From contig JAPTOF010000015.1 of the NCBI GenBank assembly GCA_028554755.1, forward strand, positions 11,016,501 to 11,080,500: a stretch of DNA of 64,000 nt, in the 5' to 3' direction. The notes below the pieces were generated by a model, which made no database searches, was not told the DNA's origin, and was given only the letters and a program-made list of their open reading frames with translations. This DNA is from Cordia subcordata (Eukaryota; Streptophyta; Magnoliopsida; Boraginales; Cordiaceae). Below are positions 1 to 50,479 of this stretch, piece by piece. The position numbers and the translations under genes are program-made. Positions within the stretch are counted from its first letter, which is position 1; every line of letters starts with the position of its first letter.

Positions 1-360
1 ACCCACAAGATAGAGAGTACATCCACTTGTTCTTTTTAATTATTATGATGAAATAGAAATTCGATACTTGATTTCTTCATTATAAATTAGATATCTGTGA
101 ACTTTAACCTTAATGCCTTCTTTGAACTAACTACACAGCCATCGAAGGTGAAGACCATTGATGTCTATTTCAAGAACATAATAGGTACCACTATCTTAGA
201 GGTTCCAGTGACCCTCAATTGTAGTGAAGCAGCTCCTTATGAAAACATTAAATTGGCTAACATTGATCTAATAGCAACCTCTGTGGATGTTGGCCCTTTT
301 TCTTCATTATGTATTAATGGCAAATTCCTAGTTCATAGGAAACTTCCCTCCCAGTTGTAG
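1..360 (+). pseudogene. Polygalacturonase (GH28) pseudogene, last exon, unit A
   Basis: An open frame from an intron-like acceptor (TTAG at 87-90) to a stop at 358-360 resembles the C-terminal exon of plant polygalacturonases, which cleave pectic homogalacturonan in cell walls. Family-like features are a valine/isoleucine-rich beta-helix strand, the stretch FKNIIGTT near residue 26, then LNCSEAAPYENIKLANIDL, matching the usual pattern of cysteine-serine, proline-cysteine, then a strand ending in aspartate-leucine. The cysteine usually following that proline is replaced by tyrosine. The upstream exon lies outside the window. The start codon is not real: this is an exon of a truncated gene. Confidence 0.72.
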
Positions 361-1079
361 CTAGATCGTAAATACATACTTAAAAGGGTCTATAGATAAT
401 TTTTTATTTAATGTTCCATTCTTTGGCATCTTTTACGAGGTCTAAAGGATGATCATTCCTTTAGATGCAAAACATGTAAGATGACATGTATCTTATAGCA
501 TTCAACTCAAATGAATATGCTAAGTCTCTTTCTTTCTATTTTCTTTTTACTTTATGAGGTATCTATTGTTTTGTTCATTGACCATGGCATGAACATAATC
601 AAATTCTTAACTATATTCTAGGTTTATGTGAACTTTGAGTCGTTAATTATAAATTTTATTATGGAATCTCAAGACTAGAGTCTTTCTTATTTACTTTTTG
701 GTCAAAGGAAGAAACTTTCATCAAGAAAAAAAGGAGTTGTAAATTACAATCTCCCCATACATCTGCTTCAGTGGTGAGACAGCTCTTCACGGCACTGGAT
801 ACGCATTAAATTCACGATGTCAATCGCCTGTAGAGAACTAAGTTTGTATCTCCTTCTTGCTAACGTTAGGTATGATTTAGGGTTGCCATCTTAGTGCAAT
901 CATGGCTCAGTAAAAGGCTTACACTTGTCCTTATGCCCCTAGGTGTAGTTTCAAGTGTCTTGGATTTTGATCTTATTCTGAGCCTAAGCTTCCATTAGCA
1001 GCTTCAACCTTTTTCTTTCCCTTCAGCTCCTAGCCTGTAATGGATACTCTTGGATTGGCTTGATCACATACTGTGCCTT
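361..1079. other. No gene: GH28 3' flank and decayed sequence, unit A
   Basis: AT-rich sequence after the GH28 stop, without a recognisable coding frame. From about 700 onward, minus-strand fragments look like the continuation of the neighbouring gypsy gag remnant, but I could not align motifs with confidence. Confidence 0.5.
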
Positions 1080-1761
1080 CTTGTTATGGCTTTAGTGGTT
1101 GGCTTTCTCATAGGTTAATCGTTACCATATACACTCCCATCTCACTTAAGAAAGGGGTTTTGTCCAAAGCCATTTCCTCAAAGATTTCAATATTACTTTC
1201 TTTAATTGCCTTCTAAATGGCGTTCCTTAAAACCACGTAGTTTTCGATATTGTGAGACTAACAGTGGTGTTACTTATAGTATTTTGGTCTAAGATTTCTT
1301 TCAATGATGGGATCTTCTTGTCTTTCAACAGGTGGTCAAATATCATCTTAGCTTTGGAGATATAGGAAAAGTAATATTTCCTCTAAGGTTTGGGGAACGC
1401 TTGGCGAACATAACCATTCTCGCCTATGATCTGCGTGAGAGAGACCATTTTTTCCTCAACACCCTTTGATAGTACATAAGTGCTTACCCTATGGTGGCTT
1501 CTATTATGTGAACTCTTATGGAGGTTAACCTCATTCTTTCTCTCTCTTCTCTATGTAGTAGCTCGTACTTGATAGCATTAGCAGCTAGCTAAAAAAGATC
1601 TATGGACAATTGCCCTTTGAATTTCTTTTATATTTCCAATTTTACATACTTGGGCTCATAAAACTATTTGTAACATCTAATATAGTACTTTTTTAAACCT
1701 CACAATAAATTGCTTTGCATAATCATTGGCATCTAGCTCATCTTGGCTAGGCCCACCTATT
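1080..1761 (-). pseudogene. Ty3/gypsy gag remnant, unit A
   Basis: The minus strand, read across frameshifts and stops, gives the C-terminal part of a plant gypsy Gag. From right to left there is a helix ending RFKKVLY, a stretch like ERKNEVNLH, then ISKAKMIFDHLLKDKKIP. These lead into a degenerate knuckle-like block (YYK, HHC, SHN) followed by an LRN-AI-KAI helix and MALDKTPF. This order matches the region between the Gag core and protease in Tat-like elements. Frameshifts and stops mean it cannot make protein. It abuts the inverted copia LTR at 1762. The exact left end is a guess. Confidence 0.6.
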
Positions 1762-3679
1762 TGAATTTTACGTTTTAAACACCACAAGCACATGGTGGTT
1801 ACTAGCTATTGGACATGATACGCTCATGATATTATTTATATGATTGAGTTTTACACAACGAACTCTTTCCATTTGCATTGATTCAGTGTATGAAGGTCCA
1901 ATGATATCGACCAATGACTTGGATGCACAGCAAGGCTAGACACAGTAGGTCCAAGTCTAGATTTGGTGATATCATAAACTAGTCCATAGCCAAATGGTGG
2001 TGGTGGATGCTTTATCAAGATAAGTCTATTGTAGGCAAGTCTCTTTGATAAGGTGATCTACCTAGTTCGTTGGATAGTTTTTCTAGACTCTAATCCTAGT
2101 GTCTATGTCATGCATTGAATAGGGCCACCATGAGTATGTCATCTAGGAACTGTACCATCAAATATAGAAGACAAATAGCTTTTGAGTTACCAATGCTCTT
2201 AATCTTGAGCATATGTGGATGAACTAATAAAGTTGGGATACAACACTTTGTTGTGCCACGGTGAGAGTTATCATTTGATATGATCATCAACATTGTACAT
2301 TAGATCTTCTGTTCTATTTAGTTATAACATGCATATGCAATAGTTGAGTCTATGCACCCTATTGGATTTGTCCAATTGATCATCAGAAATCTAGTACTAG
2401 TGATATTACTCTTCAGGGGATATTGGTCATATAGCTTGTGGGTCACTCCCTAGATCAAGAAATCTGTGACTAGTGGATAATCATTCCATGGGACAAGATA
2501 TTCTGCAGTTCCAGGTGGAGTCTTGGAGGTTATGGTACATGAAAGGACTCGCCTTTACTACGAGTATACATAGAAAGGTATTTTGATTATTTCACTCAGT
2601 TGGTGAAAGCTAGAGATCACCAGAGTGGGTGACAAGCTGCTGCGTAACAAGTGATTATTCTTTGGGTACGGCTTTGGTTTTCTGGTGAAAATAGATCGAG
2701 GTAAAAGTGGCCTTAATGTTGCCAAAGAGGTCGAGAGGGCATTTTGGTTTTTTTGAAAGTAAGGGTAATTATGTCTTTTGGTCCCTTCACTGGCCATTAC
2801 TCTATTAGATGCATCAATTTAGGAATGTTAATTACGTGGATTGCTTAATTAAGATTTGAGTTTAAAATTAAGAAGGGATTTAATTATACGGGTCTTTTTA
2901 ATATAACTCATGGACATCATAATTAGACAATCAAGCTCATATGGAAGATATTTAGTGCGTAAGCGAATATTTGGGACGGTCTTATACCAATGGGATATTT
3001 CTTTTCTAGAAGGAGTAAAGATCGGTATTATGGTGAAGCATAATATTTCCAAATCCTTATCCATATTAGGGTTGCTTAGTACTATATATTCTATGGGATA
3101 AGCATAACCCATATGGAAAAAGCGAGATCCTCTTTGAAGTATTTCTTAGAGTTTGCACAGAAATTGGCACACACTATCACTAAGTACACACATTAAATCC
3201 TATATCCTTAATTAAGCCTAGAATAATGCTTGCCTACTACGTAACACTTCATATCCTAGCAACAAAGGGTAGTAATATTGGAGAAGACCACTAAAAGGCT
3301 TGTTCGAGATTGGTATTGAGTAAAGATGCTGGTTGCATTCGAGTCACGCTACAAGGGTAATGGATCTTGACTCTACTTTTGTTGTTACTCGTGTTCTTAG
3401 TGCCCATGTGAATAATAGATTGTGCGTATGCTATATTTTTGCTCCTATTGTTATTTATATGCTTTGAGTAGCATTAGAGCTTATGTTTCTATTATTCATG
3501 TTAATGACATAAAATTGTGTAAGGATGCAATAGAATGTGTAATAATCTCGTGGGTGGCAAGATTTATAAGTTTCTATGGTGTATTTGTTATAGGTTAGCC
3601 TTTGTGCTTGCAGCACATATGTAATTTTGGTCACAGTTGATGGTTCGTATACTTGATTTAACTTTTTGAGTAGAAAAAA
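1762..3679 (+). mobile_element. Inverted copia LTR plus leader fragment, unit A
   Basis: This is the reverse-orientation relative of the copia 5' LTR at 17634-19408. Shared landmarks in inverted order include the GGTGATATCATAAA segment, the TCTAGTACTAGTGATA segment and the TATA-like block near 3083. Similarity continues past the LTR end, from about 3490 to 3679, into sequence matching the copia leader near 17400-17590. So this is a 5' LTR with the start of an internal region. The primer binding site itself is lost in a small deletion near 3465. The fragment stops where the gypsy LTR begins. Confidence 0.7.
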
Positions 3680-5100
3680 TGATGAACTTCGAAACCACCA
3701 AAAATAAGTTCCAATATCTTATCTCGCAAATTTAATTTGAGTACGTGGTGAGAAAGGGTAAAGTCAACTAGGATTGGAGGATTTAGAATATGCTAATTAT
3801 GCAAATAGATTAATTAATAAACCGCAATCAAGAGGCGGAGTTTTTAAGGCTAAAAATCAATATAACACAAAACTATCCAGTGACTAGACCCCTAAGCATG
3901 GGCACACAACTGAGCAACAAATTAGAAAACGTAAATAGCAATAAAGTCGTAGCTATGGATGCAATCTAGACCTAAATAAATGCTGGAAAATCAATATTAA
4001 ATGAGAAATCAGTGGGAATTAAGCCTAGCCTCGGGTTTAATCTCAATTTTGGTCAACAAATCAGATCCTAGATATAAAGATAACTTCCACCTATTTTGAT
4101 AAATTAGTTATGGTCATCGGCACAGTATAACAACCTCATCTTTTCTTAACGTGTTCATAATGGTTCAAGCCCCCCACAATTTTTTCCACTATCGCCTTAC
4201 CTATTAGACTGTCTAACCCTTGGAGATTCCTGCAGGGTTTATCTAACAGTAGTAATAAAAATCTAGAAAGACTTGATTCTAAAAGTCAATTCTCTGGCGG
4301 CAATTGCTCATTTAGATTATGTTTTTACACAGGTGACCTAGTTATCACTATACTTATATTAATTAAATTAATCTAATTGGCTATCTATCATCATACAATT
4401 GAATAACCACGTGCAAAATTAAACAATCATAAAACAATATTAATTCTTGAAACAGTAAACACACAAATACCAAAATGATAGTGAAAGGAGAAAAACAATT
4501 AGATCTTATAGGTTTTGAATAACCAAAAGCTGAATTAATCCTTGGCTAGAAAAGCAATTTAGAACTCTATTGTCATAAAAGTGGCACCTACAAGAGATGA
4601 AAATAACCTATTGGAAAATCTAAATATTGTCTGGATATCTCTATGAAACATATGTTGGAAAATATATAGAAGAAATTCTTAACTAGAGCCCTTATCAAAT
4701 AAGGAAACTCTTGTAAAAGTTAAAGAAAATAAAAAGGTAAAAATCCTTAATTACAATTGTTAATAAAATGAAAGTCTTGTAGAATTAATCTCCTCCCTTT
4801 CCAAAATATGGCAAGTCTTCAATACAATTCTTTTTTACAAGAGTGTTGCAAAATATTTTGAAGCTCCGATCAAAGCTAGGTCAATCCCTCATAGGCTTTA
4901 CATGGTATTTGCCAAGGTGGCAGAATCAATCTTATCAGCTACAAACATATGCAAAAAGCCTTTGAATCCATATATAATGCATCCAACTCCTTTTCCCAAG
5001 CATAAACATGTAAAAATACATTAAAAATCATTTAAGGAGCATTCAATTCCAGAATTAAGCATAAATAACTATGAATTAAAGGCTTATTTTGGACTTATCA
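3680..5100 (-). mobile_element. 3' LTR of Athila/Tat-type gypsy element, unit A (1,421 bp)
   Basis: The LTR is bounded by TGATGAAC (3680) and GACTTATCA (ends 5100), which read TGAT...ATCA on the minus strand. Immediately internal (5101-5125, minus strand) is a purine-rich AGTGTGGGGAA tract preceded by a GAGGGCAAGCATG motif, typical of plant gypsy polypurine tracts. The left end cuts the inverted copia leader, which suggests the gypsy element inserted into it. Unit A keeps about 63 bp near 4336-4400 missing from B and C. Confidence 0.72.
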
Positions 5101-7140
5101 AATTCCCCACACTTAGACCATGCTTGCCCTCAAGCATGAAACCGGTTAAGAACATACAATTTACATGTAGGATTGATCAAGAGTGTTGTTTTGCAAAGAT
5201 CAGATGCTAACTTTTCACAACCTATGAGCAAGCATACTCATGAAGCAATGCAACATTCCTTAGCATAAAACCAATGTTCTACACTTTCTGTTCACAACCA
5301 GTAGCTCATTTCATAGAGTACACATTGCTAAACACATTTAAAATATGTAGGAATCAAGACTTCAACTTATCAATTCATCCTAACAACTAGAGATTATAGC
5401 AATCAAGCATCCTTCAACTTACACTATCATTCAACACCAGAATACAATAATTCTAAACTCAATTCTCAAGACAAGAATTAATCCAAAGATAGCTCAAGTA
5501 TGCCGCATCAAACAAACATTCTCAAAGTACTTGCTAAATACACAAATCAAGCTACTTTTTTTTTCTCATCAATCATGCAATGCATCAACCTTTCAACACA
5601 TACAAAAAAAAAAAATTTGACTCTAAAAACTTTTGTAGCACTTCAATCATCAAGATTTGACTCAACCAAAAATTTTTCAAAAACCCAACTTTTCAACAAA
5701 AGAATTCCCCCGAAAACAAGCATTTTTCAGCAGTAAAACATGGCCACAGTTAGTATTTACCAAAAAGAATTCCACTAGAATTTTCCACCAAGCTTCAAAA
5801 CAACCCAACCTCCTTAGAAAGCAAACATAGTCACACAAACCTTCAAAAGTCCTTCCACCATAACTCAAAGAAACTCGAGAAGAAAAACAAAGCTAAGCTA
5901 GTTTCTAGTAGGACAAAACAATTATCACCACATGTATAAGTTACCCAAATAGCATCCAAACACTATGTAAATGAACCTCACACCAGTTAATGCACATACA
6001 AAAGATTAAAGCCAAGCATGATTATGCTAATGCACAACAGAGAAATCAAAAACACTTACCTCGACATGCAATTTTTCTCCAAAAAAAATAAGTTTGTGCT
6101 TAGGCCCAGCTGCCAGAAGATTAGATCACTTCATTGCTTCCTTTCACTTTCATAAATAACTTTCATGATTTTCCAAGAATGTCACTCATCCTTTTTACCC
6201 GATGATAAACATTTGTGATAAATACCCCAATTAATCAATTGGTCACAATTCTAGGTGGCTATTAGCTTTACTCATGGTCCCCTTTTTTTTTAGAAGACTA
6301 GCGGAGTAAGAAGACACTTATTCAATTTAATTTCATTCATGCAGCTTTTTTTTATAATTTAAAATTTCAGCACTTTTGTAGGAGTGACCTCAACCCCGAC
6401 ATAACTTTTCTAGGCACGCACTTTTTTCACAATTTTACCATAAAAAAATAAATCAAGGCAAGTACCATCAAACTCAAAATAAGCATTGAACTTCAATTTA
6501 AGCGCATGAACATTTTAAGCCCAAGTTACGTTAAGCAAGGTTCAAGCACGTCGTGTTCAAAGTAACAATCAAGGAACTAAATACAATGTGGATGGATTTT
6601 TACATGTACCAACTAACTGTTGCAAGCAAAATAAGTTTCCCGTGCATTGGGATTAGACTTTTTCCAGGAGAGGTGCCAAGTTCACAAAGAAGGAAGTGGA
6701 GTAAAAAGAAAAAGGATTTGACAAAAGAGCTTTTAAGGACTTAATAGTTTGACTTTAAACACAAAGAAACATGAACTAAAAACATTAAAGGACTCTAGAA
6801 AGACATTTTTACAAGACACTTAACAACAACAAAAAAACCTTTTTTGTCATTTTTTTGGTTTTCCTCTTTTTTTCCTATTCATAAAGACTCAAGAAGACTT
6901 GAGCAATACTAAATATAACATATGTATTCACAAAACTCAATATATCACATTAAAAACACATCTAAGCATAAAAAAGACTCAAACATAAAGGGCTAAAATG
7001 AAGCATTCCTTCCCTATATTTATGTTGCACATTGTTTTCAATGTGTAAAGAAAAGTAAGTAATAAAACAAAAGAAAGAGAAAACAAAATGAAGAAAAAGA
7101 GAAGTAAGATGACTTCCCTTAAATGAGGTGAAGGAGGTGG
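5101..7140 (-). mobile_element. 3' untranslated region of gypsy element, unit A
   Basis: Long AT-rich stretch between the env-like ORF and the 3' LTR with no coding frame. It holds a perfect inverted motif CACATTG-TTTT-CAATGTG at 7028-7045, a feature often seen downstream of the last ORF in Athila-type elements, and several homopolymer runs of T or A. Confidence 0.6.
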
Positions 7141-8589
7141 TGGAACGGGCTATCAGTCATCCGAAGTAGGGCCATGGTACCCCAAGTGTTGTACCCAACC
7201 ACAAAGTAATTGCTCCAATCTAGCAAGCGTTATGGATTGATTGGCCAATGATTTCTCTATGCAAGCCAACCGAGCCTCGTCAGTGGTGTGGGACGTGAAT
7301 GGGCCAACCATGTGGGATGCTGAGGCTTCGTATGCATCCTCCAAATGTGCTACCACTGGGTGTGTATCCTGTATAATGAAAACATATCTATCTCCCTTGA
7401 GAAGATTCATGGCTTACAAACATAATAAGTCTAAATATGCCATGTTAAATGCTTTAGTAAGGGCAGTAGAGCATGATTTAAAATGAGTATGAGTTACTGC
7501 CATGTCTGTAATGAATGACCCCTAGATTAATAGCCTCTTACTATAGCTAACAACAGCACTAAAATGTGTGAGAAGCTAATAACCAAAATTGACTTGTTTC
7601 TTGTGAACTATGCACCATAAGAAAAAGAGTTCCATTTTTGTCAACATAGTTAGATTATTGGCTTTTCTTGAAAAGGAATATGCCAAAAATCAATGAATGT
7701 AAATCAATGCTAGATTTGCAAGAAAGTGATCACGTGAAGTGCTTGGCTTATAGGGTAGAGGATCCATGGGTGCCAACTCTTTATATGCAAGTGAAGCATC
7801 AAAATCAGATGGAAATGCACATAAGCTATTCAAATACTCCTCAGATTTCAGAGAATTGCCTAGTTATGAAACCCATTATCAAATTAAACTCAGTTATAGA
7901 CAAATAACAATCCATGCTTATCATTCTAAAGCAGACCCTTTTGGTGTATTAACATTGAAAGTACTTACTGTATCAAATTTAAATGTAGCACAGAATTCTC
8001 AAGTTCAAAATAAGTAGGCTGATTAACTTTTGCATAAGTCTATAACCCAACATTACCAAGAAATTCTAGCCCTTGATTCTCTAAGTCGAGCAGTTTTAAA
8101 GCCTCAAAATCCATTGATTTACAAGCATAAAAATCACAAGACAACATTTCAGCATACCTAATGCGATGCTCCAGATTTTAAAATAGTGGAGTGGTATGCA
8201 AAGAAGCTGGTATAGAGACTTGCAAAACTCAACCAATAGAAACTTAGGCTTAACCACTCAAAGAAGGGAGTGGAGGAACAACGGGCGGCTAAAGGGCTAT
8301 TTGGCCGCCCATCGCCACTATGCCTTGGTTGCTGGCATGCATCATCTTTTCAAGGGAAGTCGTAAATGGTGTAGGTTGTGGGGTTGGGGGTTGGCTAGGG
8401 GTTCTACTTAGGGTTGGGAGCTGTTTTCTTGAACAAGAGAGGGTTTTTACCTTTAAAAATATGCGCATAGCGTTGAGCAGGTGGGGGCACTGATGATAGC
8501 GATGTGGGGGTAGGGGTTATTGGTTTAGATCTGGGTTCTTCTCGCGAGACCAGAAGGTGAAGCCTTGTCTTCCAATTTTTCTTCGCCAT
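7141..8589 (-). pseudogene. Athila-type env-like (ORF3) pseudogene, unit A
   Basis: The minus strand has an ATG at 8589 opening a basic, serine/proline-rich N-terminus (MAKKNWKTRLHLL, then PTPTSLSSVPPP). After frameshifts come segments such as AYKELAPMDPLPYKP and, near the end, SHTTDEARLACIEKSLANQS (7410-7153). Position and style fit the third ORF located between integrase and the 3' LTR in Athila/Tat elements, whose role is unproven. Several stops and frame changes make it non-functional. In unit A a stop splits the C-terminal block that is 116-117 codons long in B and C. Confidence 0.6.
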
Positions 8590-8620
8590 GATAGTTTGTG
8601 TGTTGTATTATGGAGATGAT

Positions 8621-8636
8621 TGAATATTCACAGCGA
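8621..8636. other. Unit A / unit B junction
   Basis: The TGAATATT at 8621-8628 is shared with unit C (50042-50049). After it, units A/B read CACAGCG, the inside of a copia LTR, while unit C reads TTAGAGC and stays in gypsy sequence. The breakpoint lies about 40 bp upstream of the start codon of the minus-strand env-like ORF. It therefore joins the interior of a gypsy element to the interior of a copia LTR. Confidence 0.85.
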
Positions 8637-9136
8637 ATCTTAAACATCAATACATAAGACAACAGTGTCATTGCAAGTCAAAGAATCACATAGACATATC
8701 GCAACGAATAACAAATCATTAATCCTAAGCCATGTGATTTGTTATTTATGTCACGTTCAGTGATAATATGACTAACTAATTAGCCACATGTTTGCTATTT
8801 ACATCTCATGCTTTATGGTATGTGACATACCCTCCTTTATCATTAATATCTCATATTTATCAAAGGTAGCAAACTTATGTGACAATCTATATTAGATTAA
8901 TTGAAAACCCAATCAAAAAATCTTTAGACTGAACAATTTAAGCATTCTCAATCCAAAGAAACATGTCACATATTTTTAATAACTTAAAAATATATTTGTT
9001 TTATAGAGAAATCTAAGGACTCATTCATATAAAAGGATACATGAATGATAAAAAGCCATTTAAAGAAATACAAGTTTACATCAACATACCCTTAAAAGAA
9101 GTCATCTAATTCTAGCATTAGGGCATATCTCTAACA
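8629..9136 (-). mobile_element. Truncated second copia LTR at unit start, unit B (508 bp)
   Basis: Read on the minus strand, the sequence begins TGTTAGAGATATGCCCTAATGC at 9136, a classic plant copia LTR start (TGTTxGA...ATGCCCTAA). It continues to the unit junction, where it is cut. It is a different LTR from that of the long copia element beside it, whose left LTR is itself truncated at 9137. It probably inserted into that LTR before the duplication. Confidence 0.65.
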
Positions 9137-11363
9137 TCTCTTGTCCCATAAAATGATCATCCACTGGTCACGAATCTCTTGATCTAGGGAATGACCCACA
9201 AGTTAAATGACCGATATACCCCTGAAGTGTATTATCACTAGTACTAGATTTTTGGTGATCAAGTGGACAAATCCAAGGGGGCACATAGACTCTGCTATTG
9301 CATATGCATGTCTCAACTTATTTAGAATACAACACCCAACATATGTGGCAGACAATCTTATCACATAAGACCTCTCCTTATGCTACATCAAAGTGTTACT
9401 GATGTGCTTAAACCTCAGGTCTTGTGTAGTGAAGTGTGTAAGTACGGGGTTGTTCTTCCACAGGGAGGCTACCTTAATTTAGTCTCTACATGCTCAGTGC
9501 ATAAAACTATCTATATCTGCATGTGTGTTTTCTTTAAGATCAAAAGGAGCTTGGGGAAAGAAAAATAAACTTAAGCTAACATAATCTAATGGAGGAACCT
9601 AAGGCGCCAAGCTAGGGAAAAAAAGCTCTACAAGATGGAAGGGAATCTCGTGCGATTGTGTTACAACTAGACTTGAGTTATAATATCAATTCGGTCTATC
9701 TATGGCTCAATTGCTCACTTTGGTCTTCATTAACATCCTACTCAAGAGACTAACCTATTAGTATTGTTTCAAACTAGAGATTAGACTTTTAGAACATTAA
9801 CTAGTGTTAGTGGGTACCTGTTTAGTATTATCTCAAACAAAAGTTGTACTTCTACCATACTAAGTCGTCAATTAAGCATATTAATCAACACACATTAGTT
9901 GCAAATAGCGCTCATGATGTTGGCATGGATTAAGACTAAGGTGACACCACTAACGATAGCATTTAAGCACAAAAGAACACATGCATCTTCACTTAGGCAT
10001 TTTAGCAAACATATAGACATGTTTGATTCTCAACATATAGACATATTGTTTCATGCCATTAATCAATGTAAAGAAGCATGTACCAAGAACCAATGATGTA
10101 CACAAATCCTTTACTCACAGGCCTAATCTAATATACAACAACAAATATCCAAAGATCTAGCCTAATCTAGCAACATATTTACAAGAAATAGAAAGAGAAC
10201 AAGAAGAACTCCTCCAAATTTTGCTTTCAAATCCATACAAGCCCTTCAAATCATTGTTAGATGCTTTAATCCTAGCTTAGTATAGGGTTTAGATGGTGTA
10301 TAAAGGTGCTAATTGAAGTGGGAAAAGGGTTAGGGCTAATGGGCGTAAAAGATTATTGGGTTCCCCCTTTAATTTTGAGCTGAAAAGGGCTTTTTATAGT
10401 TGTTTGCGGGGTCTGCCAGTCACCCTAATGTATTTATTGGCAAGGACATGACCCGACCAGCAAGTATTGTAGCTTTTTACCTATTCCCTGGTTATGCCAG
10501 TCACTGTTGTTGATCGACTGGCAGGGGTGACCAGCAGACTCTGCAAATTGCACAAAATCTTCGTTCCTCATCCAGTCTTTGCTCTTTAGCCTTTGCATCT
10601 TTTTCGGAAGCCTTCAAAGCCATTTTTCTTCATCTTTTCATCTTTAGATCACCCTCAAGCTTTGTAGTTAGGCCTACTCATATTCAATTAAGCTCAATTC
10701 CTTCTCCCAAAACACATCTAAAACATGAAATATGGCATTTAGTGTAGCATTTATGTATTTCAATACCTTATGCACATATATGGCTAAGTATACACAAATG
10801 TAACACCAAATATACTCAATTATGCTTAAAACACCTTTAAATGTGCATGAAAAAACTATATACAAATACACATAAATAACACACATCAGCTACACCCTAA
10901 TTTAGTTCATCCACACATGCTCAAGATTAAAAGCATTGGTCACTCGGAAGCTGTTAGTATCTTGTCTTCTATATGTGATGATATGGTTCCTACAAGACAT
11001 ACTCAAGGTGGTCTTTCCCAATGCTTGATGCACATACTAGGAGCATAGTCTAAAAAACCGTCAATGACCTAGGTAATCACCTTCTCAATGAGACCCGCCC
11101 ACTATAACTTTGTCTTGGTAGAGTCCCCAATACTACCATTTGGCTATGGACATCTTTTATGATATCACCAAATCTAGACTTGGACCAACTGTGCACCCAA
11201 ATCTTTGGTCTTTATCATTAGACCTTCATACTTTGCACCAATGCAAAAATGGAGAGACTATGCTGTGCAAAACTCAATCATATGAATGATACCATGAACT
11301 TATTATGTCTAGTATCCAGTAATCACCGTGTGCTTGTGGTCTTTAGGGCATACAATTCCAACA
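9137..11363 (-). repeat. Copia 3' LTR, truncated and interrupted, unit B
   Basis: Corresponds to about the last 740 bp of the 5' LTR (18665-19408) on the plus map. It is split by the solo LTR at 9400-10888. It ends at 11363 (coding-strand TGTTGGAATTGTATGCCC). Its left part is cut by the neighbouring copia LTR. Confidence 0.75.
9400..10888 (-). mobile_element. Solo LTR of Tat-type gypsy family, unit B (older insertion)
   Basis: A 1,489-bp block bounded by TGATGTG...CACATCA interrupts the copia LTR. It is flanked by GTTAC (9395-9399) and GCTAC (10889-10893), a 5-bp target duplication with one mismatch. Removing it restores similarity to 18900-18935. There is no internal region, so it is a solo LTR. 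It resembles the solo LTR at 32401-33965 in reverse-strand start, the AGGGAGGCTACCTTA block and the end, and is related to the LTRs at 51822 and 59474. Units B and C both have it, so it predates the duplication. Confidence 0.82.
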
Positions 11364-11376
11364 GTCTCCCATTTGT
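11364..11376 (-). other. Copia polypurine tract, unit B
   Basis: On the minus strand ACAAATGGGAGAC lies directly before the LTR start TGTTGGAATT, the expected position for plus-strand DNA priming in copia elements. Confidence 0.7.
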
Positions 11377-17631: not shown

Positions 17632-17633
17632 CT

Positions 17634-31267: not shown

Positions 31268-31280
31268 GTCTCCCATTTGT

Positions 31281-33965: not shown

Positions 33966-33970
33966 GGCTC
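33966..33970. repeat. Target-site duplication, right copy (GGCTC)
   Basis: Matches 32396-32400. Sequence continues CGAG as in unit B. Confidence 0.9.
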
Positions 33971-36449: not shown

Positions 36450-37215
36450 CTAGACTAAACAGCACTAAAAGGTTTAACTTTAGGAATGGAAACTTGGGCC
36501 TTTTTTTGAATGATAGACTCTACTTTCCTAAGTTCCTTCACTAAATCGAAAAAGGTCAAGTTCAACTTGTTTGACTTAACTGTTAGCTTGAGCTTCTTGA
36601 AGGTTTCTGGTAGTGTCTCGAGTATCATCTCAATTTGAGTTGTAATGTCAATATAAGCACCTAAGGTCTTGGCAATGTCAAAGTTATCCATCAACCTAAG
36701 TACATGCTCTTCTCTTTCTGCCATCCTAGAATTCATGATCTCTCATATGGCAGCTTGCCTAACTGGCCTACTAATGTTGTTGAATATCTTAGACAATGAG
36801 GTCATGATTTCTGTAGTAGTCCCCATACCCTCGTGCTGTATCAACAAACTGTCGAAAAAAGATGCTAATATATAGCATTTGGCCATAGCATTAGCACTCA
36901 TCCAACCTTGTTCAGCATCTTACTGGATATTAGTAGAACCAATCCCTATCGGGAACAGGGTTGGGTAAGGACAAACTTGTACCCATTCTCACTGAGTACT
37001 TTGTCCAAGTTCCTCTTTTAGTGAACATTGTTTGGGCTGGTTAACTTATTCTCGAAGAGAATACCCGCCAAACCATTAGAGGAACTGGACAACATTTTAC
37101 TAGATACAGATATAATGATATCATAAATGAATGAGTAAAATAATATGATACAAGTATGATATGTATGTAAAAGTGGAAGACAACATACATTAAACCCTTT
37201 TACATCATTTGCCAT
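36450..37215 (-). pseudogene. Copia gag pseudogene, unit C
   Basis: Same domains as in unit B. The C-terminal open block is slightly longer (36736-36455, 93 codons), because a one-base difference near the poly-lysine codons moves the stop. Disrupted elsewhere by stops. Confidence 0.82.
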
Positions 37216-39127: not shown

Positions 39128-39139
39128 GCTTTGATACCA
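39128..39139 (-). other. Copia primer binding site, unit C
   Basis: Minus strand TGGTATCAAAGC, two bases inside the LTR start at 39142, as in unit B. Confidence 0.85.
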
Positions 39140-39141
39140 CT

Positions 39142-40915
39142 TGTTGGATCTAGATGCTATTCCTATGGCTAGTTTTCATTCCAAATTCTAAAAAACAAAA
39201 TCAGATTAACAACGATGGGAATGGTAACATAGCATAAATAAAGTCTATTATACACATGGGCATCATATTCAAACAAAAACACGAGTAAATTTAAGACCCG
39301 TTACCCTTGTAGCACCCAGATGCAAAATTGGTTTCTTCGTGTAGTACCCGCCTTGTATTATTCTTCTAGTGGTCTTCTCCACTATTTCCAAAGCTCTATT
39401 TCTAGGAAACAATTTGCTCTATAGTAGGCAAGCAATTTTTAAGGCTAAATTAAGGTCATGGAATTTAGTGTGTGTTCTTGGTGCTAGTGTGTGAAATTTC
39501 CTACACAAACCTATGAAGGAAATATCTCTCTCTCTTTCATTCTCATATGGGTTATGCATATCTTGTACTATTTATAGTCCAAGGTAACCTTAATAAGGAT
39601 AAAGTTCCTAGAATTTTATGTTTCACTATAATACCTCTCCTTAGTCTTTCTAGAAATGGAATATTCCCTAGGGATAAGGATATCCCAAATATTTCATCTC
39701 ACACACTAAATATCTTCCATGTAGGCCTTACTTATCTAAATAAGATATCCATGAGTTATATTAAGAAATCCCAGATAATTAAATCCCTTCTTAATTCTAA
39801 ACTCCAATCTTAATTGACAAACCACATAATTGATTTACCTTAATTAATTTATCAAATAGAGTAATGGCTAATGGAGGAATCAAAAGACATAATTACCTTT
39901 GGCATCAAATATGACCAAAATACCCTCGTCATCTCTTAGCCGACACTAAGGCCATTTTAACCTCAGTCTATTTCTGCCAGAAGACAAAAGCCACACTCCA
40001 GGATAATTACTGGCTAAGTAGGAGCTTGTCACCTGCTCCGGTGACCTCTGTCTTTGACCAACCAAGTGAAATGTCCAAGACACCCCTCAATGTATACCTG
40101 TAGTCAAGGTCGATCGCAACAAGCACCATCACCCCCAAGACTACAAATGGAATCTCGAAATCTCTAGTCCCATATAATGATTATCCACTAGTCATGGATT
40201 TCTTAATCTAAGGAGTGACCCATAAGCCAAATGATCGATATACCCCTGAGGGTATTATCACTAGTACTAGATTTCTGGTGATCAAGTGCACAAATCCAAG
40301 GGGGCACATAGACTCTACTGTTGCATTTGCATGTCCCAACTTAGTTAGCATGCAATACCCAACGTACGTGGTAGACAATCTTATCATACAAGACCTCTCC
40401 TTGTGGTACATCAAAGTGCTGTACCTTAACTTAGTTAGTTCATCTGCATATGCTCAAGATTAAGAGCATTGGTCACTCAAAAGCTATGAGTAACTTGTCT
40501 TCTATAGTTGACGGTACAGTTCCCAAAAGACATACTCACGATAGCCTTCTTCAATGCGTGACACACACTCTAGGAGCGTAGTCTAGAAAACCATCCAATG
40601 ACCTAGGTAGATCACCCTCTCAAGAAGACTCGCCCAGTATAACCTTGTCCCCGTAGAGTAACTAATACTACCATCTGGTTATGAATATCTTTTATGATAT
40701 CACCAAATCTGGACTTGGATCTATTGTGCATCCAGCTTCACTACGCACTCAAGTTATTGGTCTATATCATTGGACCTTTATACTTTGTAGTAATGCATAG
40801 ATAGAGAGAAGAAGTTGTGCAAAACTCAATCATATGAATGATACGATGAACATATTATGTCTACTCTTCAGTACTCACCATGTGCTTTTAGTCTTTAGGG
40901 CATACATCTTCAACA
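39142..40915 (-). repeat. Copia 5' LTR, unit C (1,774 bp)
   Basis: TGTTGGATCT at 39142 to ...CTTCAACA at 40915, giving intact TGTTG...CAACA termini. An antisense 88-codon frame (39547-39813) is conserved from unit B. Confidence 0.82.
39569..39576 (-). promoter_or_regulatory. TATA box of copia 5' LTR, unit C
   Basis: Minus-strand TATAAATA, unchanged from unit B. Confidence 0.5.
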
Positions 40916-41079
40916 CCTATCATTAACTTATGTTATCTCTTGATGACAGAAAATAAATCTCAAACATGGGTGTTATTCAATATAATCATCACTACAAATT
41001 AGAGATAGCATAACTTGTGAATATTCTTTTATATTTGATAATTCTTCTAAACATTCACATATGTTTATATATGTGACAG

Positions 41080-41816
41080 CATTGGTAGCTGTCACGGAGA
41101 AACAGATGTAAAAAGAATTACCATAACCAACTATAAATTCATTGGCGCAACAAATGGAGCTAGAATTAAGACTTGGCATGATTCTTCAGTACTTTCAGCT
41201 TCAAACATTGTCTATGAAGATTTAGTTATGAATGCGGTTACCAACCCATTATCATCAACTAATACTACAATTCAATTAGTAGAGTAGTGGTAAGATGCTA
41301 TACTTTCTTGTGCTTAAGTGAATTTAAAATATTTTTTTAGTTATGATTTTGTAATTTTGATGTCCAAATATACTGAAACTTATGAAAAGTAAGTGATTGT
41401 TTTCTCATAAAATATTAAAGTTTATCAAACTATTTTATAGAATCATTAGGTTTCTTACCCACAAGATAGAGAGTACATCCACTTGTTCTTTTTAATTATT
41501 ATGATGAAATAGAAATTCGATACTTGATTTCTTCATTATAAATTAGATATCTGTGAACTTTAACCTTAATGCCTTCTTTGAACTAACTACACAGCCATCC
41601 AAGGTGAAGACCATTGATGTCTATTTCAAAAACATAATAGGTACCACTATCTTAGAGGTTCCAGTGACCCTCAATTGTAGTGAAGCAGCTCCTTATGAAA
41701 ACATTAAATTGGCTAACATTGATCTAATAGCAACCTCTGTGGATGTTGGCCCTTTTTCTTCATTATGTATTAATGGCAAATTCGTAGTTCATAGGAAACT
41801 TCCCTCCCAGTTGTAG
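41080..41816 (+). pseudogene. Polygalacturonase (GH28) pseudogene, two 3' exons, unit C
   Basis: Same two-exon fragment as in unit B, with the identical frame lesion after NP and the stop (41260-41262) in the following block, so the gene was already dead before duplication. The last exon (about 41547-41816) remains open for the same 87 codons with a few substitutions. It lacks the catalytic region. Confidence 0.8.
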
Positions 41817-42549
41817 CTAAATCGTAAATACATACTTAAAAGGGTCTATAGATAATTTTTTATTTAATGTTCCATTCTTTGGCATCTTCTAGGAGGTCTA
41901 AAGGATGATCATTCCTTTAGATGCAAAACATGTAAGATGACATGTATCTTATAGCATTCAACTCAAATGAATATGCCAAGTCTCTTTCTTTCTATTTTCT
42001 TTTTACTTTATGAGGTATCTATTGTTTTGTTCATTGACCATGGCATGAACACAATCAAATTCTTAACTATATTCTAGTTTTATGTGAACTTTGAGTCGTT
42101 AATTATAAATTTTATTATGGAATCTCAAGACTAGAGTCTTTCTTATTTACTTTTTGGTCAAAGGAAGAAACTTTCATCAAGAAAAAAAGGAGTTGTAAAT
42201 TACAATCTCCCCATACATCTGCTTTAGTGGTGAGACAGCTCTTCACGGCACTGGATACGCATTAAATTCACAATGTCAATTGCCTGTAGAGAACTAAGTT
42301 TGTATCTCCTTCTTGCTAACGTTAGGTATGATTTAGGGTTGCTATCTTAGTGCAATCATGGCTCAGTAAAAGGCTTACACTTGTCCTTATGCCCCCAGGT
42401 GTAGTTTCAAGTGTCTTGGATTTTGATCTTATTCTGAGCCTAAGCTTCCATTAGCAGCTTCAACCTTTTTCTTTCCCTTCAGCTCCTAGCCTGTAATGGA
42501 TACTCTTGGATTGGCTTGATCACATACTGTGCCTTCTTGTTATGGCTTT
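41817..42549. other. No gene: GH28 3' flank and decayed sequence, unit C
   Basis: AT-rich, no supported coding frame. Agrees with unit A where unit B has private changes. Confidence 0.5.
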
Positions 42550-43241
42550 AGTCGTTGACTTTCTCACAGGTTAATTGTTACCATATACACTCCCATCTCA
42601 CTTAAGAAAGGGGTTTTGTCCAAAGCCATTTCCTCAAAGATTTCAATATTACTTTCTTTAATTGCCTTCTAAATGGCGTTCCTTAAAGCCACGTAGTTTT
42701 CGATATTGTGAGACTAACAGTGGTGTTACTTCTAGTATTTTTGGTCTAAGATTTCTTTCAATGATGGGATCTTGTGTTCTGCTAATAGTCGCACTTGCTT
42801 GTCTTTCAACAGGTGGTCAAATATTGTCTTAGCTTTGGAGATATAGGAAAAGAAATATTTCCTCTAAGGTTTGGGGAACGCTTGGCAAACATAACCATTC
42901 TCGCCTATGATCTACGTGAGAGAGACCATTTTTTCCTCAACACCCTTTGATAGTACATAAGTGCTTACCCTATGGTGGCTTCTATTATGTGAACTCTTAT
43001 GAAGGTTAACCTCATTCTTTCTCTCTCTTCTCTATGTAGTAGCTCGTACTTGATAGCATTAGCAGCTAGCTAAAAAAGATCTATGGACAATTGCCCTTTG
43101 AATTTCTTTTATAATTCCAATTTTACATACTTGGGCTCATAAAACTATTTGTAACATCTAATGTAGTACTTTTTTAAACCTCACAATAAATTGCTTTGCA
43201 TAATCACTGGCATCTAGCTCATCTTGGCTAGGCCCACCTAT
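42550..43241 (-). pseudogene. Ty3/gypsy gag remnant, unit C
   Basis: Same decayed region as in A and B, including the stretch near 42773 missing in A. Several frames, none intact. Confidence 0.58.
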
Positions 43242-45164
43242 TCGAATTTTACATTTTAAACACCACAAGCACATGGTGGTTACTAGCTATTGGACATGAT
43301 ACGTTCATGATATTATTTATATGATTGAGTTTTACACAACGAACTCTTTTCATTTGCATTGATTCAGTGTATGAAGGTCCAATGATATCGACCAATGACT
43401 TGGATGCACAGCGAGGCTAGACACAGTAGGTCCAAGTCTAGATTTGGTGATATCATAAACTAGTCCATAGCCAAATGGTGGTGTTGGATGCTTTATCAAG
43501 ATAAGTCTATTGTAGGCAAGTCTCTTTTGATAAGGTGATCTACCTAGGTCGTTGGATAGTTTTTCTAGACTCTAATCCTAGTGTCTATGTCATGCATTGA
43601 ATAGGGCCACCATGAGTATGTCATCTAGGAACTATACCATCAAATATAGAAGACAAATAGCTTTTGAGTTACCAATGCTCTTAATCTTGAGCATATGTGG
43701 ATGAACTAATAAAGTTGGGATACAACACTTTGTTGTGCCACGGTGAGAGTTATCATTTGATATGATCATCAACATTGTACATTAGATCTTCTGTTCTATT
43801 TAGTTATAACATGCATATGCAATAGTTGAGTCTATGCACCCTATTGGATTTGTCCAATTGATCATCAGAAATCTAGTACTAGTGATATTACTCTTCAGGG
43901 GATATTGGTCATATAGTTTGTGGGTCACTCCCTAGATCAAGAAATCTGTGACTAGTGGATAATCATTCCATGGGACAAGATATTCTGCAATTCCAGATGG
44001 AGTCTTGGAGGTTATGGTACATGAAAGGACTCGCCTTGACTATGAGTATACATAGAAAGGTATTTTGATTATTTCACTCAGTTGGTGAAAGCTAGAGATC
44101 ACCAGAGTGGGTGACAAGCTGCTGCGTAACAAGTGATTATTCTTAGGGTACAGCTTTGGTTTTCTGGTGAAAATAGATCGAGGTAAAAGTGGCCTTAATG
44201 TTGCCAAAGAGGTCGAGAGGGCATTTTGGTTATTTTGAAAGTAAGGGTAATTATGTCTTTTGGTCCCTCCACTGGCCATTACTCTATTAGATGCATCAAT
44301 TTAGGAATGTTAATTATGTGGATTGCTTAATTAAGATTTGAGTTTAAAATTAAGAAGGGATTTAATTATACGGGTCTTTTTAATATAACTCATGGACATC
44401 ATAATTAGACAATCGAAGCTCATATGGAAGATATTTAGTGCGTAAGCCAGAATATTTGGGACGGTCTTATACCAAAGGGATATTTCTTTTCTAGAAGGAG
44501 TAAAGATGTGTATTATGGTGAAGCATAATATTTCCAAATCCTTATCCATATTAGGGTTGCTTAGTACTATATATTCTATGGGATAAGCATAACCCATATG
44601 GAAAAAGCGAGATCCTCTTTGAAGTATTTCTTAGAGTTTGCACAAAAATTGGCACATACTATCACTAAGTACACACATTAAATCCTATATCCTTAATTAA
44701 GCCTAGATTAATGCTTGCCTACTACGTAACACTTCATCTCCTAGCTACAAAGGGTAGTAATATTAGAGAAGACCACTAAAAGGCTTGTTCGAGATTGGTA
44801 TTGAGTAAAGATGCTGGTTGCATTCGAGTCACGCTACAAGGGTAATGGATCTTGACTCTACTTTTGTTGTTACTCGTGTTCTTAGTGCCCATATGAATAA
44901 TAGATTGTGCGTATGCTATATTTTTGTTTCTATTGTTGTTTATACGCTTTGAGTAGCATTAGAGCTTATGTTTCTATTATTCATGTTAATGACATAAAAT
45001 TGTGTAAGGATGCAATAGAATGTGTAATAATCTCGTGGGTGGCAAGATTTATAAGTTTCTATGGTGTATTTGTTATAGGTTAGCCTTTGTGCTTGCAGCA
45101 CATATGTAATTTTGCTCCCAGTTGATGGTTCATATACTTGATTTAACTTCTTGAGTAGAAAAAA
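43242..45164 (+). mobile_element. Inverted copia LTR plus leader fragment, unit C
   Basis: Counterpart of 1762-3679 and 21730-23650. It forms the right arm of the inverted copia pair whose left arm is 39142-40915. Confidence 0.7.
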
Positions 45165-46520
45165 TGATGAACTTCGAAACCACCAAAAATAAGTTCCAAT
45201 ATCTTATCTCGCAAATTTAATTTGAGTACGTGGTGAGAAAGGGTAGAGTCAACTAGGATTGGAGGATTTAGAATATGCTAATTATGCAAATAGATTAATC
45301 AATAACCCGCAATCAAGAGGCGGAGTTTTTAAGGCTAAAAATCGATATAACACAAAACTATCCAGCCACTAGACCCTTAAGCATGGGCACACAACTGAGC
45401 AGCAAATTAAAAAACGTAAATAGCAATAAAGTTGTAGCTATGGATGCAATCTAGACCTAAATAAATGCTGGAAAATCAATATTAAATGAGAAATCAGTGG
45501 GAATTAAGCCTAGCCTCGGGTTTAATCTCAATTTTGGTCAACAAATCAGATCCTAGATATAAAGATAACTTCCACCTATTTTGATAAATTAGTTATAGTC
45601 ATCGGCACAGTATCACAACCTCATCTTTTCTTAATGTGTTCATAATGGTTCAAGCCCTCCACAATTTTTTCCACTATCGCCTTACCTATTAGACTGTCTA
45701 ACCCTTGGAGATTCCCGCAGCGTTTATCTAACGGCAGTAATAAAAATCTAGAAAGACTTGATTCTAAAAGTCAATTCTCTGGCGGCAATTGCTCATTTAG
45801 ATTATGTTTTTACACAGGTGAATAAACACGTGCAAAATTAAACAATCATAAAACAATATTAATTCTTGAAATAGTAAACACACAAACACCAAAATGATAG
45901 TGAAAGGGGAAAAACAATTAGATCTCATGGGTTTTGAAGAACCAAAAGCTGAATTAATCCTTGGCTAGAAAAGCAATTTAGAACTCTATTGTCATAAAAG
46001 TGGCACCTACAAGAGATGAAAATAACCTATTGGAAATTCTAAATATTGTCTGGATATCTCTATGAAACATATGTTGGAAAATATATAGAAGAATTTCTTA
46101 ACTAGAGCCCTTATCAAATAAGGAAACTCTTGTAAAAGTTAAAGAAAATAAAAAGGTAAAAATTCTTAATTACAATTCTTAATGAAATGAAAGTCTTGTA
46201 GAATTAATCTCCTCCCTTTCCAAAATATGGCAAGTCTTCAATACAATTCTTTTTTACAAGAGTGTTGCAAAATATTTTGAAGCTCTGATCAAAGCTAGGT
46301 CAATCCCTCATAGGCTTTACATGGTATTTTCCAAGGTGGTAGAATCAATCTTATCAACTACAAACATATGCAAAAAGCCTTTGAATCCATATATAATGCA
46401 TCCAACTCCTTTTCCCAAGCATAAACATGCAAAAATACATTAAAAAATCAATTAAAGAGCATTCAATTCCAGAATTAAGCATAAATAACTATGAATTAAA
46501 GGCTTATTTTGGACTTATCA
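45165..46520 (-). mobile_element. 3' LTR of Athila/Tat-type gypsy element, unit C
   Basis: TGATGAAC at 45165 to GACTTATCA ending at 46520. This is the LTR of the one gypsy copy still connected to its own integrase (50480-51821). Confidence 0.74.
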
Positions 46521-48570
46521 AATTCCCCACACTTAGACCATGCTTGCCCTCAAGCATGAAACCAGTTAAGAACATACAATTTACATGTAGGATTGATCAA
46601 GAGTATTGTTTTGCAAAGATTAGATGCTAACTTTTCACAACCTATGAGCAAGCATACCCATGAAGCAATGCAACATTCCTTAGCATAAAACCAATGTTCT
46701 ACACTTTCTGTTCACAACCGGTAGCTCATTTCATAGAGTACACATTGCTAAACACATTTAAAATATGTAGGAATCAAGACTTTAACTTATCAATTCATCT
46801 TAACAACTAGAGATTATAGCAATCAAGCATCCTTCAACTTACACTATCATTCAACACCAGAATACAATAATTCTAAACGCAATTCTCAACACAAGCATTA
46901 ATCCAAAGATAGCTCAAGTATGCCGCATCAAACAAACATTCTCAAAGTACTTGCTAAATACACAAATCAAGCTACTTTTTTTTCTCATCAATCATGCAAT
47001 GCATCAACCTTTCAACACATACAAAAAAAAAAATTTTTGACTCTAAAAACTTTTGTAGCACTTCAATCATCAAGATTTGACTCAACCAAAAATTTTTCAA
47101 AAACCCAACTTTTCAACAAAAGAATTCCCCGGAAAACAAGCATTTTTCAGCAGTAAAACATGGCCACAGTTAGTATTTACCAAAAAGAATTCCACTAGAA
47201 TTTTCCACCACGCTTCAAAACAACCCAACCTCCTTAGAAACCAAACATAGTCACACAAACCTTCAAAAGTCCTTCCACCATAACTCAAAGAAACTCGAGA
47301 AGAAAAACAAAGCTAAGCTAGTTTCTAGCAGGACAAAACAATTATCACCACATGTATAAGTTACCCGGATAGCACCCAAACACTATGTAAATGAACCTCA
47401 CACCAGTTAAAGCACACACAAAAGATTAAAGCCAAGCATGATTATGCTAATGCACAGAAGAGAAATCAAAAACACTTACCCCGACATGCAATTTTTCTCC
47501 AAAAAAAATAAGTTTGTGCTTAGGCCCAGCTGCTAGAAGATTAGATCACTTCAATTGCTTCCTTTCACTTTCATACATAACTTTCATGATTTTCCAAGAA
47601 TGTCACTCATCCTTTTTACCCGATGATAAACATTTGTGATGAATACCCCGGTTAATCAATTGGTCACAATTCTAGGTGGCTATTAGCTTTACTCATGGTC
47701 CCTTTTTTTTTAGAAGACTAGCGGAGTAAGAAGACACTTATTCAATTTAATTTCATTCATGCAGCTTTTTTTTTATAATTTAAAATTTCAGCACTTTTGT
47801 AGGAGTGACCTCAACCCCGACATAACTTTTCTAGGCACGCACTTTTTTCACAATTTTACTATAAAAAAATAAATCAAGACAAGTACCATCAAACTCAAAA
47901 TAAGCATTGAACTTCAATTTAAGCGCATGAACATTTTAAGCCCAAGTTACGTTAAGCAAGGTTCGAGCACGTCGTGTTCAAAGTAACAATCAAGGAACTA
48001 AATACAATGTGGATGGATTTTTACATGTACCAACTAATTGTTGCAAGCAAAATAAGTTTCCCGTGCATTAGGATTAGACTTTTTCCAGGAGAGGTGCCAA
48101 GTTCACAAAGAAGGAAGTGGAGTAAAAAGAAAAAGGATTTGACAAAAGAGCTTTTAAGGACTTAATAGTTTGACTTTAAACTCAAAGAAACATGAACTAA
48201 AAACATTAAAGGACTCTAGAAAGACATTTTTACAAGACACTTAACAACAACAAAAAAACCTTTTTTGTCATTTTTTTGGTTTTCCTCTTTTTTTCCTATT
48301 CATAAAGACTCAAGAAGACTTGAGCAATACTAAATATAACATATATATTCACAAAACTCAATATATCACATTAAAAACACATCTAAGAATAAAAAAGACT
48401 CAAACATAAAGGGCTAAAATGAAGCAGCCCTTCCCTATATTTATGTTGCACATTGTTTTCAATGTGTAAAGAAAAGTAAGTAATAAAACAAAAGAAAGAG
48501 AAAACAAAATGAAGAAAAAGGGAAGTAAGATGACTTCCCTTAAATGAGGTGAGGGAAGTGGTGGAACGGG
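46521..48570 (-). mobile_element. 3' untranslated region of gypsy element, unit C
   Basis: Non-coding, with the inverted CACATTG...CAATGTG motif at 48449-48466 and the purine-rich tract beside the LTR (about 46521-46545). Confidence 0.58.
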
Positions 48571-50010
48571 CTATCAGTCATCCGAAGTAGGGCCATGGTA
48601 CCCCAAGTGTTGTACCCAACCATAAAGTAATTGCTCCAATCTAGCAAGCGTTATGGATTGATTGGCCAATGATTTCTCTATGCAAGCCAACCGAGCCTCG
48701 TCAGTGGTATGGGACGTGAATGGGCCAACCATGTGGGATGCTAAGGCTTCGTATGCATCCTCCAAATGTGCTACCACTGGGTGTGTATCCTGTATAATGA
48801 AAACATATCTATCTCCCTTGAGAAGATTCATGGCTTGCAAACATAATAAGTCTAAATATGCCATGTTAAATGCTTTAGTAAGGGCAGTAGAGCATGATTT
48901 AAAATGAGTATGAGTTACTGCCATGTCTGTAATGAATGACCCCTAGATTAATAGCCTCTTTCTATAGCTAACAACAGCACTAAAATGTGCGAGAAGCCAA
49001 CAACCAAAATTGACTTGTTTCTTGTGAACTATGCACCATAAGAAAAAGAGTTCCATTTTTGTCAACATAGTTAGATTATTGGCTTTTCTTGAAAAGGAAT
49101 ATGCCAAAAATCAATGAATGTGAATCAATGCTAGATTTGCAAGAAAGTGATCACGTGAAGTGCTTGGCTTATAGGGTAGAGGATCCATGGGTGCCAACTC
49201 TTTATATGCAAGTGAAGCATCAAAATTAGATGGAAATGCACATAAGCTATTCAAATACTCCTCAGATTTCAAAGAATTGCCTAGTTATGAAACCCATTAT
49301 CAAATTAAACTCAGTTATAGACAAATAACAATCCATGCTTATCATTCTAAAGCAGACCCTTTTGGTGTATTAACATTGAAAGTACTTACTGTATCAAATT
49401 TAAATGTAGCACAGAATTCTCAAGCTCAAAATAAGTAGGATGATTAACTTTCACATAAGTCTATAACCCAACATTACCAAGAAATTCTAGCACTTGATTC
49501 TCTAAGCCGAGCAATTTTAAAGCCTCAAAATCCATTGATTTACAAGCATAAAAATCACAAGACAACATTTCAGCATACCTAATGCGATGCTCCAAATTTT
49601 AAAATAGTGGAGTGGTATGCGAAGAAGCTAGTATAGAGACTTGCAAAACTCAACCAATAGAAACTTAGGCTTAACCACTCGAAGAAGGGAGTGGAGGAAC
49701 AACGGGTGGCTAAAGGGCTATTTGGCCGCGCATTGCCACTATGCCTTGGTTGCTAGCATGCATCATCCTTTCAAGGGAAGTCGTAAATGGTGTAGGTTGT
49801 GGGGTAGGGGGTTGGCGAGGGGTTCTACTTAGGGTTGGGAGCTGTTTTCTTGAACAAGAGAGGGTTTTTACATTTAAAAATGTGCGCATAATGTTGAGCA
49901 GGTGGGGGCACTGATGATAGCGATGTGGGGGTAGGGGTTATTGGTTTAGATCTGGGTTCTTCTCGGGAGACCAGAAGGTGAAGCCTTGTCTTCCAATTTT
50001 TCTTCGGCAT
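48571..50010 (-). pseudogene. Athila-type env-like (ORF3) pseudogene, unit C
   Basis: ATG at 50010 opens MPKKNWKTRLHLL. The C-terminal block is a 116-codon frame (48924-48574). Unlike in units A and B, the sequence upstream of the ATG is the genuine element (leader, then integrase), which confirms the env-like position downstream of pol. Frameshifts break the middle. Confidence 0.62.
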
Positions 50011-50479
50011 AATAGTTTGTGTGTTGTATTATGGAGATGATTGAATATTTTAGAGCTTGGGTGGTGGCTATAGAGGATTATAGGTGGTAGAAGTGGCTAG
50101 TATAGGTATACAGAGAGTGGGGGCAGCTGCTATTGAGAAAATAAGAGAGGGGGGCAATTTTTGAAAATAAGGAAAAGCTATGGTTTGTGATAAAAAATTT
50201 ATGTTTTAAAATAGACCGTAAGCTTCTCCATGCCCATGCCTAAGCCCTTAGTGTACCATTTTTTCAAAAATTAGCTCAAAAACTCACCAAAATTCCCAAG
50301 CAACTCTTCCTTACAAGTATCAAGACCTTCATAAAATACATTTAGATCAAAGTTATGGTTTCCAAGGAAAAAGATGATCAAAATTACTAGAAAAATTCCT
50401 AAAAAATAAGAAAACATTTGTAAAAATTATAAACTAACTTGAAAACTCTAGAAAACTCAAAATTAACATTTCTAACTTC
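50011..50479 (-). mobile_element. Gypsy region between integrase and env-like ORF
   Basis: No coding frame. On the minus strand it begins with GGGAGGCAACCCATG (about 50495-50480), the short motif typical of the end of pol in Tat/Athila elements, and runs AT-rich to the env-like ATG. The array border (50049) falls here. Confidence 0.55.

What the first reader, a model, noticed from the sequence alone, without database searches (positions are those of the whole stretch)
1..50049. Head-to-tail tandem duplication of a 20-kb retroelement-rich block
At least 2.4 units of about 19.9 kb lie in direct order, each containing the same nest of copia, gypsy, GH28 and plastid-like pieces. Units differ by scattered substitutions and private indels, so they are not simple assembly copies. 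Large tandem units made of dead retroelements are not typical satellites and may be a young amplification, with more units left of the window.
Basis: seen in the sequence. Interest (0 to 1): 0.75.

Follow-up and report, generated by a model that had tools for sequence, protein, structure and literature searches.

The report
Three tandem copies of transposon graveyard
A 20-kb stretch of dead transposons and a gene fragment in a plant chromosome appears to have been copied in place into three head-to-tail units, an ordinary kind of DNA duplication whose edges and timing happen to be readable.

Summary
The repeat is real and larger than reported. Fetching the flanks shows exactly three complete head-to-tail units: 19,975, 19,904 and 21,517 bp. 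The first begins 11.3 kb left of the window. No fourth unit was found in 60 kb to the left or 34 kb to the right. The three unit pieces I searched in the 472-Mb assembly occur at 96% or more only here. The outer edges look ancestral: other copies of the two repeats they cut run across them (left 5 of 5 sampled; right 1 of 6 in one piece). So the block was duplicated where it lay. The internal junction is the same both times; the breakpoints share only 4 bp (TATT) and no long homology. The units are equally diverged (2.0-2.1%) without mosaic pattern, so one became three within roughly the first 13% of the array's age (95% bound, one model). C-to-T changes concentrate in CG and CHG, as in methylated, silent DNA. 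GH28 pieces and a weak copia gag piece are in the unit; gypsy and plastid pieces were not confirmed there. Best explanation: a non-homologous tandem duplication, a fast second step, then independent decay. Long reads are still needed as proof.

The parts
1..8628 (+). unit 1, right-hand 8,628 bp (the other 11,347 bp lie left of the window, in L011 and L012)
8629..28532 (+). unit 2, complete, 19,904 bp
28533..50049 (+). unit 3, complete, 21,517 bp with a private 1,570-bp insertion
8625..8629 (.). junction unit 1|unit 2, with 4-bp microhomology TATT shared by unit end and left flank
28529..28533 (.). junction unit 2|unit 3, the same joint as the first
50049..50050 (.). right edge of the array; a C15 paralogue aligns across it in one piece, so the edge looks ancestral
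8629..9140 (+). truncated dispersed repeat X at the start of unit 2 (same in unit 3); in unit 1 it continues leftward to about -12216
25000..28532 (+). part of dispersed repeat Y, cut by the junction; its continuation lies right of 50049
32404..33961 (.). private insertion in unit 3, flanked by an imperfect 11-bp direct repeat (ATAAGGCTCTG / ATCAGGCTCCG); partly related to 29327-30792 in the same unit
14988..15248 (-). copia-type gag fragment (PF14223, 25.5 bits, cut-off 27), unit 2 copy
19544..19777 (+). GH28 (polygalacturonase) piece, unit 2 copy
20040..20306 (+). second GH28 piece, unit 2 copy
17423..19390 (+). 2-kb repeat left of the GH28 pieces
21744..23647 (-). the same 2-kb repeat inverted (about 72% identical), right of the GH28 pieces

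Best explanation
One 20-kb stretch of silent, transposon-laden plant DNA was duplicated in place by joining a point inside repeat Y to an upstream point inside the unrelated repeat X, with only 4 bp (TATT) in common. This points to end joining or microhomology-mediated template switching, not recombination between long repeats. [quoted passage not shown] Since then the three units have decayed independently as methylated heterochromatin, with no detectable exchange among them. Shown: three units, exact shared junction, no long homology at the breakpoints, equal divergence, C-to-T spectrum. Supported but less firm: both edges ancestral (left strong, right on one paralogue that spans it in one piece). 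Inferred: the repair pathway, the second step, the age and the methylation.
For: Three units in the array, and the searched pieces at 96% or more nowhere else among the candidates scored. Same joint twice, with TATT. P(4 bp or more) = 0.022 for random pairs, and no significant match between the 3-kb breakpoint neighbourhoods, best E 1.1. Left edge: 5 of 5 sampled dispersed copies and one local copy align across it. Right edge: C15 paralogue L030 aligns over 48558-51369 as one HSP (77.9%), while queries built on the two internal junctions stop 161 and 13 bp before the joint. Distances 2.144, 2.011, 2.025%. Singletons 208/213/185, chi-square 2.21; 257 of 500 shuffles reach the observed breakpoint score. 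Mosaic fraction f 0.03, interval 0-0.09. C>T 13.0% CG, 13.9% CHG, 2.8% CHH.
Against: 4 bp of microhomology is modest: about 1 random pair in 46 does as well. At the right edge only 1 of 6 loci held for this test (C15) spans in one piece; C21 has pieces on both sides at nearly the expected spacing, C8 and C45 have short pieces on both sides about 0.6 kb too close, and C56 and C1 show nothing on the unit side in the 1-1.5 kb held. The C15 paralogue is only 50-54% identical in the 60 columns on either side of the edge. No reads were available, so an assembly fault is not formally excluded. Gene conversion that reset all units at once would also give a star.
Confidence: 0.8

Rival explanations
1. 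Assembly artefact: haplotypes or overlapping contig ends were laid side by side.
For: No reads or depth could be examined; divergence of 2% could in principle be allelic.
Against: Three units, not two; the same base-exact junction twice, which is hard to get from an assembler without reads that hold it; equal three-way divergence; no further near-identical copy found elsewhere in the assembly.
Confidence: 0.05
2. Non-allelic homologous recombination between two copies of the same retroelement flanking the block made the first duplication.
For: Both breakpoints lie in dispersed repeats, and this is a usual cause of tandem duplications (general knowledge).
Against: The two repeats are unrelated: the 3-kb neighbourhoods give no significant match (best E 1.1) and share 4 bp at the joint.
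Confidence: 0.04
3. A circular DNA formed from the block, was multiplied by rolling circle and went back into the home locus, giving three copies at once.
For: Would explain equal divergence and identical junctions in one step.
Against: Outer edges appear continuous with the ancestral repeats on both sides, so reinsertion would have to be by homology at the home locus.
Confidence: 0.08

Closest known systems
Large tandem duplications in Arabidopsis ddm1 and ddm1 polIV plants (PMC10462705, passages read)
   Same: Large plant segmental duplications of 34-56 kb, reported as tandem, one of them in a repeated region
   Different: Those are recent and two-copy, in hypomethylated mutants (no SNPs between copies in the one examined); this one is old, three-copy and shows a methylation-type C-to-T spectrum
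CUP1 tandem arrays of yeast (PMC4232551, abstract, opening text and one results section read)
   Same: Units bounded by unrelated sequences, with no or at most 3 bp of homology at the joint; the authors infer non-homologous origin
   Different: The common unit is 2 kb and carries a metallothionein gene; here 20 kb of dead repeats without an evident gene
Tandem triplication of human 20q11.21 (PMC8165465, passages read)
   Same: Head-to-tail triplication with equal units, same breakpoints and short microhomology; the authors' break-induced replication model gives the third copy
   Different: About 0.75 Mb, in cultured human cells
Grey locus of the horse, two- and three-copy alleles (PMC11362437, passages read)
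   Same: Head-to-tail copies, 6-bp microhomology, one to three copies
   Different: 4.6-kb regulatory unit with a phenotype
Composite satellites from 'transposon graveyards' (review PMC12628747, passages and one section read)
   Same: Tandemisation of a block that holds remnants of several transposons
   Different: Only three units of 20 kb and no spread; not a satellite

Membership tests
In-situ tandem segmental duplication | direct head-to-tail order at one locus | tested here: met
In-situ tandem segmental duplication | left outer edge continuous with ancestral flank | tested here: met
   5 of 5 sampled dispersed copies and one local copy align across it; L008 in two pieces, split 136 bp from the edge
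In-situ tandem segmental duplication | right outer edge continuous with ancestral flank | tested here: met
   1 of 6 loci spans in one HSP (C15), one more collinear with expected spacing (C21), the rest shortened or without match on the unit side; low identity close to the edge
In-situ tandem segmental duplication | junction present in the molecule (reads) | not testable with these tools
   no reads held
Duplication by homologous recombination between repeats | long homology between the two breakpoints | tested here: not met
Microhomology-mediated duplication | short shared sequence at the joint | tested here: inconclusive
   4 bp, P = 0.022 by chance
Satellite DNA | many copies kept alike by exchange | tested here: not met
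   three copies, no exchange detected
Tandem LTR retrotransposon (shared LTR) | unit is LTR plus internal region | tested here: not met
   unit edges lie in two unrelated repeats

The most novel reading that the evidence does not exclude
The array is a frozen first step of a composite satellite made from a transposon graveyard: one silent 20-kb block became three in a single replication-based burst and then stopped, with no exchange, giving a dated natural record of how such blocks begin.
Probability: 0.25. Interest if true: 0.4.

Novelty: new member of a known kind. Interest (0 to 1): 0.22.

Why it matters
It is a well-preserved case in which the edges, the joint, the copy number and the pace of a large non-genic tandem duplication can be read from one assembly. 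A recent review proposes that tandemised transposon graveyards seed composite satellites (PMC12628747); this would be an early, arrested stage. It is otherwise an ordinary structural variant with no sign of function.

Tried and rejected
Homology between the breakpoints was sought and not found. A mosaic unit 2, expected if the third copy arose late by unequal exchange, was sought and not found. Plastid content: a RuBisCO large-subunit search was meant to find a plastid contig for comparison. It gave 17 matches, none covering the whole family and 13 of 17 with stops inside, so no plastid contig was recognised and no comparison was made. Domain scans covered all 59 stop-free pieces of 60 aa or more of unit 2 (tally) and 80 of 42-59 aa. 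They gave the copia gag piece, two GH28 pieces and two matches below cut-off that I regard as chance (PF09035 at 0.0018, PF04068 at 0.016). Units 1 and 3 were not scanned separately, save one unit-3 piece without a match. Genome searches with the GH28 region and with 11400-14900 did not complete, so genome copy numbers of those parts are unknown.

Full report
What was checked. The window is C7:11016501-11080500 of an unnamed 472-Mb assembly in 62 contigs. That it is a plant is inferred from the CG/CHG mutation pattern, the GH28 pieces and the broken RuBisCO pieces. Self-comparison confirms direct repeats with offsets of 19.9, 21.5 and 41.4 kb at 97.2-97.7% identity. With 60 kb of left and 20 kb of right flank added, the array is exactly three units, from window coordinate -11346 to 50049, of 19,975, 19,904 and 21,517 bp. 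The first 1,001 bp of the unit occurs at 97% or more at three places, all in this array; 37 further listed matches cover roughly its first 510 bp at 81-88%, and one covers a short later part (only 40 of 3,029 candidates were scored). The last 450 bp and 3.4 kb near the end occur at 96% or more only at the same three places (40 of 229 and 40 of 440 candidates scored). The rest of the unit was not searched genome-wide.

The edges and the joint. The first base of the unit lies inside a 1.4-kb dispersed repeat, X. Five of five sampled copies elsewhere (the best-matching loci) and one copy 21 kb to the left run across this edge; one of the five (L008) aligns in two pieces, split 136 bp from the edge. 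The last 3.5 kb of the unit belongs to another dispersed repeat, Y (57 listed matches, three of them the array, the others at 69-89%). A copy on C15 (L030) aligns as one piece from 48558 to 51369, across the right edge, at 77.9%, whereas queries centred on the two internal junctions match it only up to 161 and 13 bp before the joint. Five other loci with matches to the right flank were held. C21 has pieces on both sides at nearly the expected spacing (977 against 962 bp). C8 and C45 have short pieces on both sides about 0.6 kb closer than expected. C56 and C1 show nothing on the unit side in the 1-1.5 kb held. Close to the edge identity to C15 falls to 50-54% in 60-column stretches and 60-66% in 300-column stretches, although the alignment stays collinear. 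Both outer edges are therefore best read as ancestral and the duplication as in situ, the right one with less certainty. The joint is the same in both places, and left flank and unit end share TATT. Random position pairs in the region share 4 bp or more in 2.2% of cases, and the two 3-kb neighbourhoods have no significant similarity.

History. Over 19,864 gap-free columns, 606 two-state sites divide into 208, 213 and 185 unique to units 1, 2 and 3 (chi-square 2.21, 2 df); columns with three states, five by the table, were left out. A search for one recombination point found nothing (257 of 500 shuffles as good). Runs of like sites were not unusual (149 and 139 of 1,000 shuffles as high). In a model in which unit 2 is a chimera made by a later unequal exchange, the best extra fraction is 0.03 and the upper 95% profile bound 0.09. 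By my own arithmetic, f = 2(T0-T1)/(2T0+T1), this puts the second step within the first 13% of the array's age. K2P distances of 0.0204-0.0218 give 1.5-1.6 million years at 7e-9 and about 0.8 at 1.3e-8 per site and year (both rates recalled, and unsuited if the plant is slow-growing). There are 38 indel blocks; the largest is a 1,570-bp insertion in unit 3 with an imperfect 11-bp direct repeat at its ends.

State of the DNA. Polarised by majority, C-to-T changes hit 13.0% of CG, 13.9% of CHG and 2.8% of CHH cytosines, against 0.83% transitions at A/T sites. That is the expected mark of CG and CHG methylation, so the block has probably been silent since it was copied. No intact gene was found in unit 2: only two GH28 pieces and a weak copia gag piece have credible Pfam matches. 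I see no reason to give the array a function.

Mechanism and comparison. The data fit a non-homologous tandem duplication, by end joining or microhomology-mediated break-induced replication, with a rapid second step. Precedents are the CUP1 arrays of yeast (PMC4232551), the human 20q11.21 triplication (PMC8165465), the Grey locus of the horse (PMC11362437) and large tandem duplications in Arabidopsis methylation mutants (PMC10462705), each seen in passages or single sections. It differs from satellites in copy number and in the lack of exchange, and from shared-LTR tandem retrotransposons because the unit edges lie in two unrelated repeats. A review proposes that tandemised transposon graveyards become composite satellites (PMC12628747); this array could be such a beginning that went no further, but nothing here shows it will or did become one.

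Verdict. A well-defined, ordinary tandem segmental duplication of mostly dead repeats, real as far as an assembly without reads can show; new as an instance, not as a kind.

Noticed in passing
51816-64000 (continuing to about 68272 in L013): A separate, older tandem of about 7.4 kb period that looks like LTR-internal-LTR-internal-LTR of a retrotransposon: three LTR-like copies 12-14% apart, primer-site-like motifs (recalled) at 53916 and 61359, and a gag domain (PF03732) at 62112-62480.
   Followed up: partly
L019 (window coordinates -59999 to -50038): Two direct copies of a 613-bp stretch, 9.3 kb apart, 99% identical: possibly the LTRs of a recent insertion some 39 kb left of the array.
   Followed up: no
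17423-23647 and, right of the window, coordinates 79283-83652 (L014): The GH28 pieces sit between inverted copies of a 2-kb repeat (about 72% identical), and a region related to 19408-21820 at about 82%, with the same kind of neighbour, lies 29 kb right of the array: perhaps remnants of an older gene cluster or of a gene-carrying transposon. Genome searches for it did not complete.
   Followed up: no
32404-33961: The private insertion of unit 3 has diverged relatives in parts of 29327-30792 of the same unit (72-83%), so one family may have inserted both before and after the duplication; no direct terminal repeats were seen in it.
   Followed up: partly
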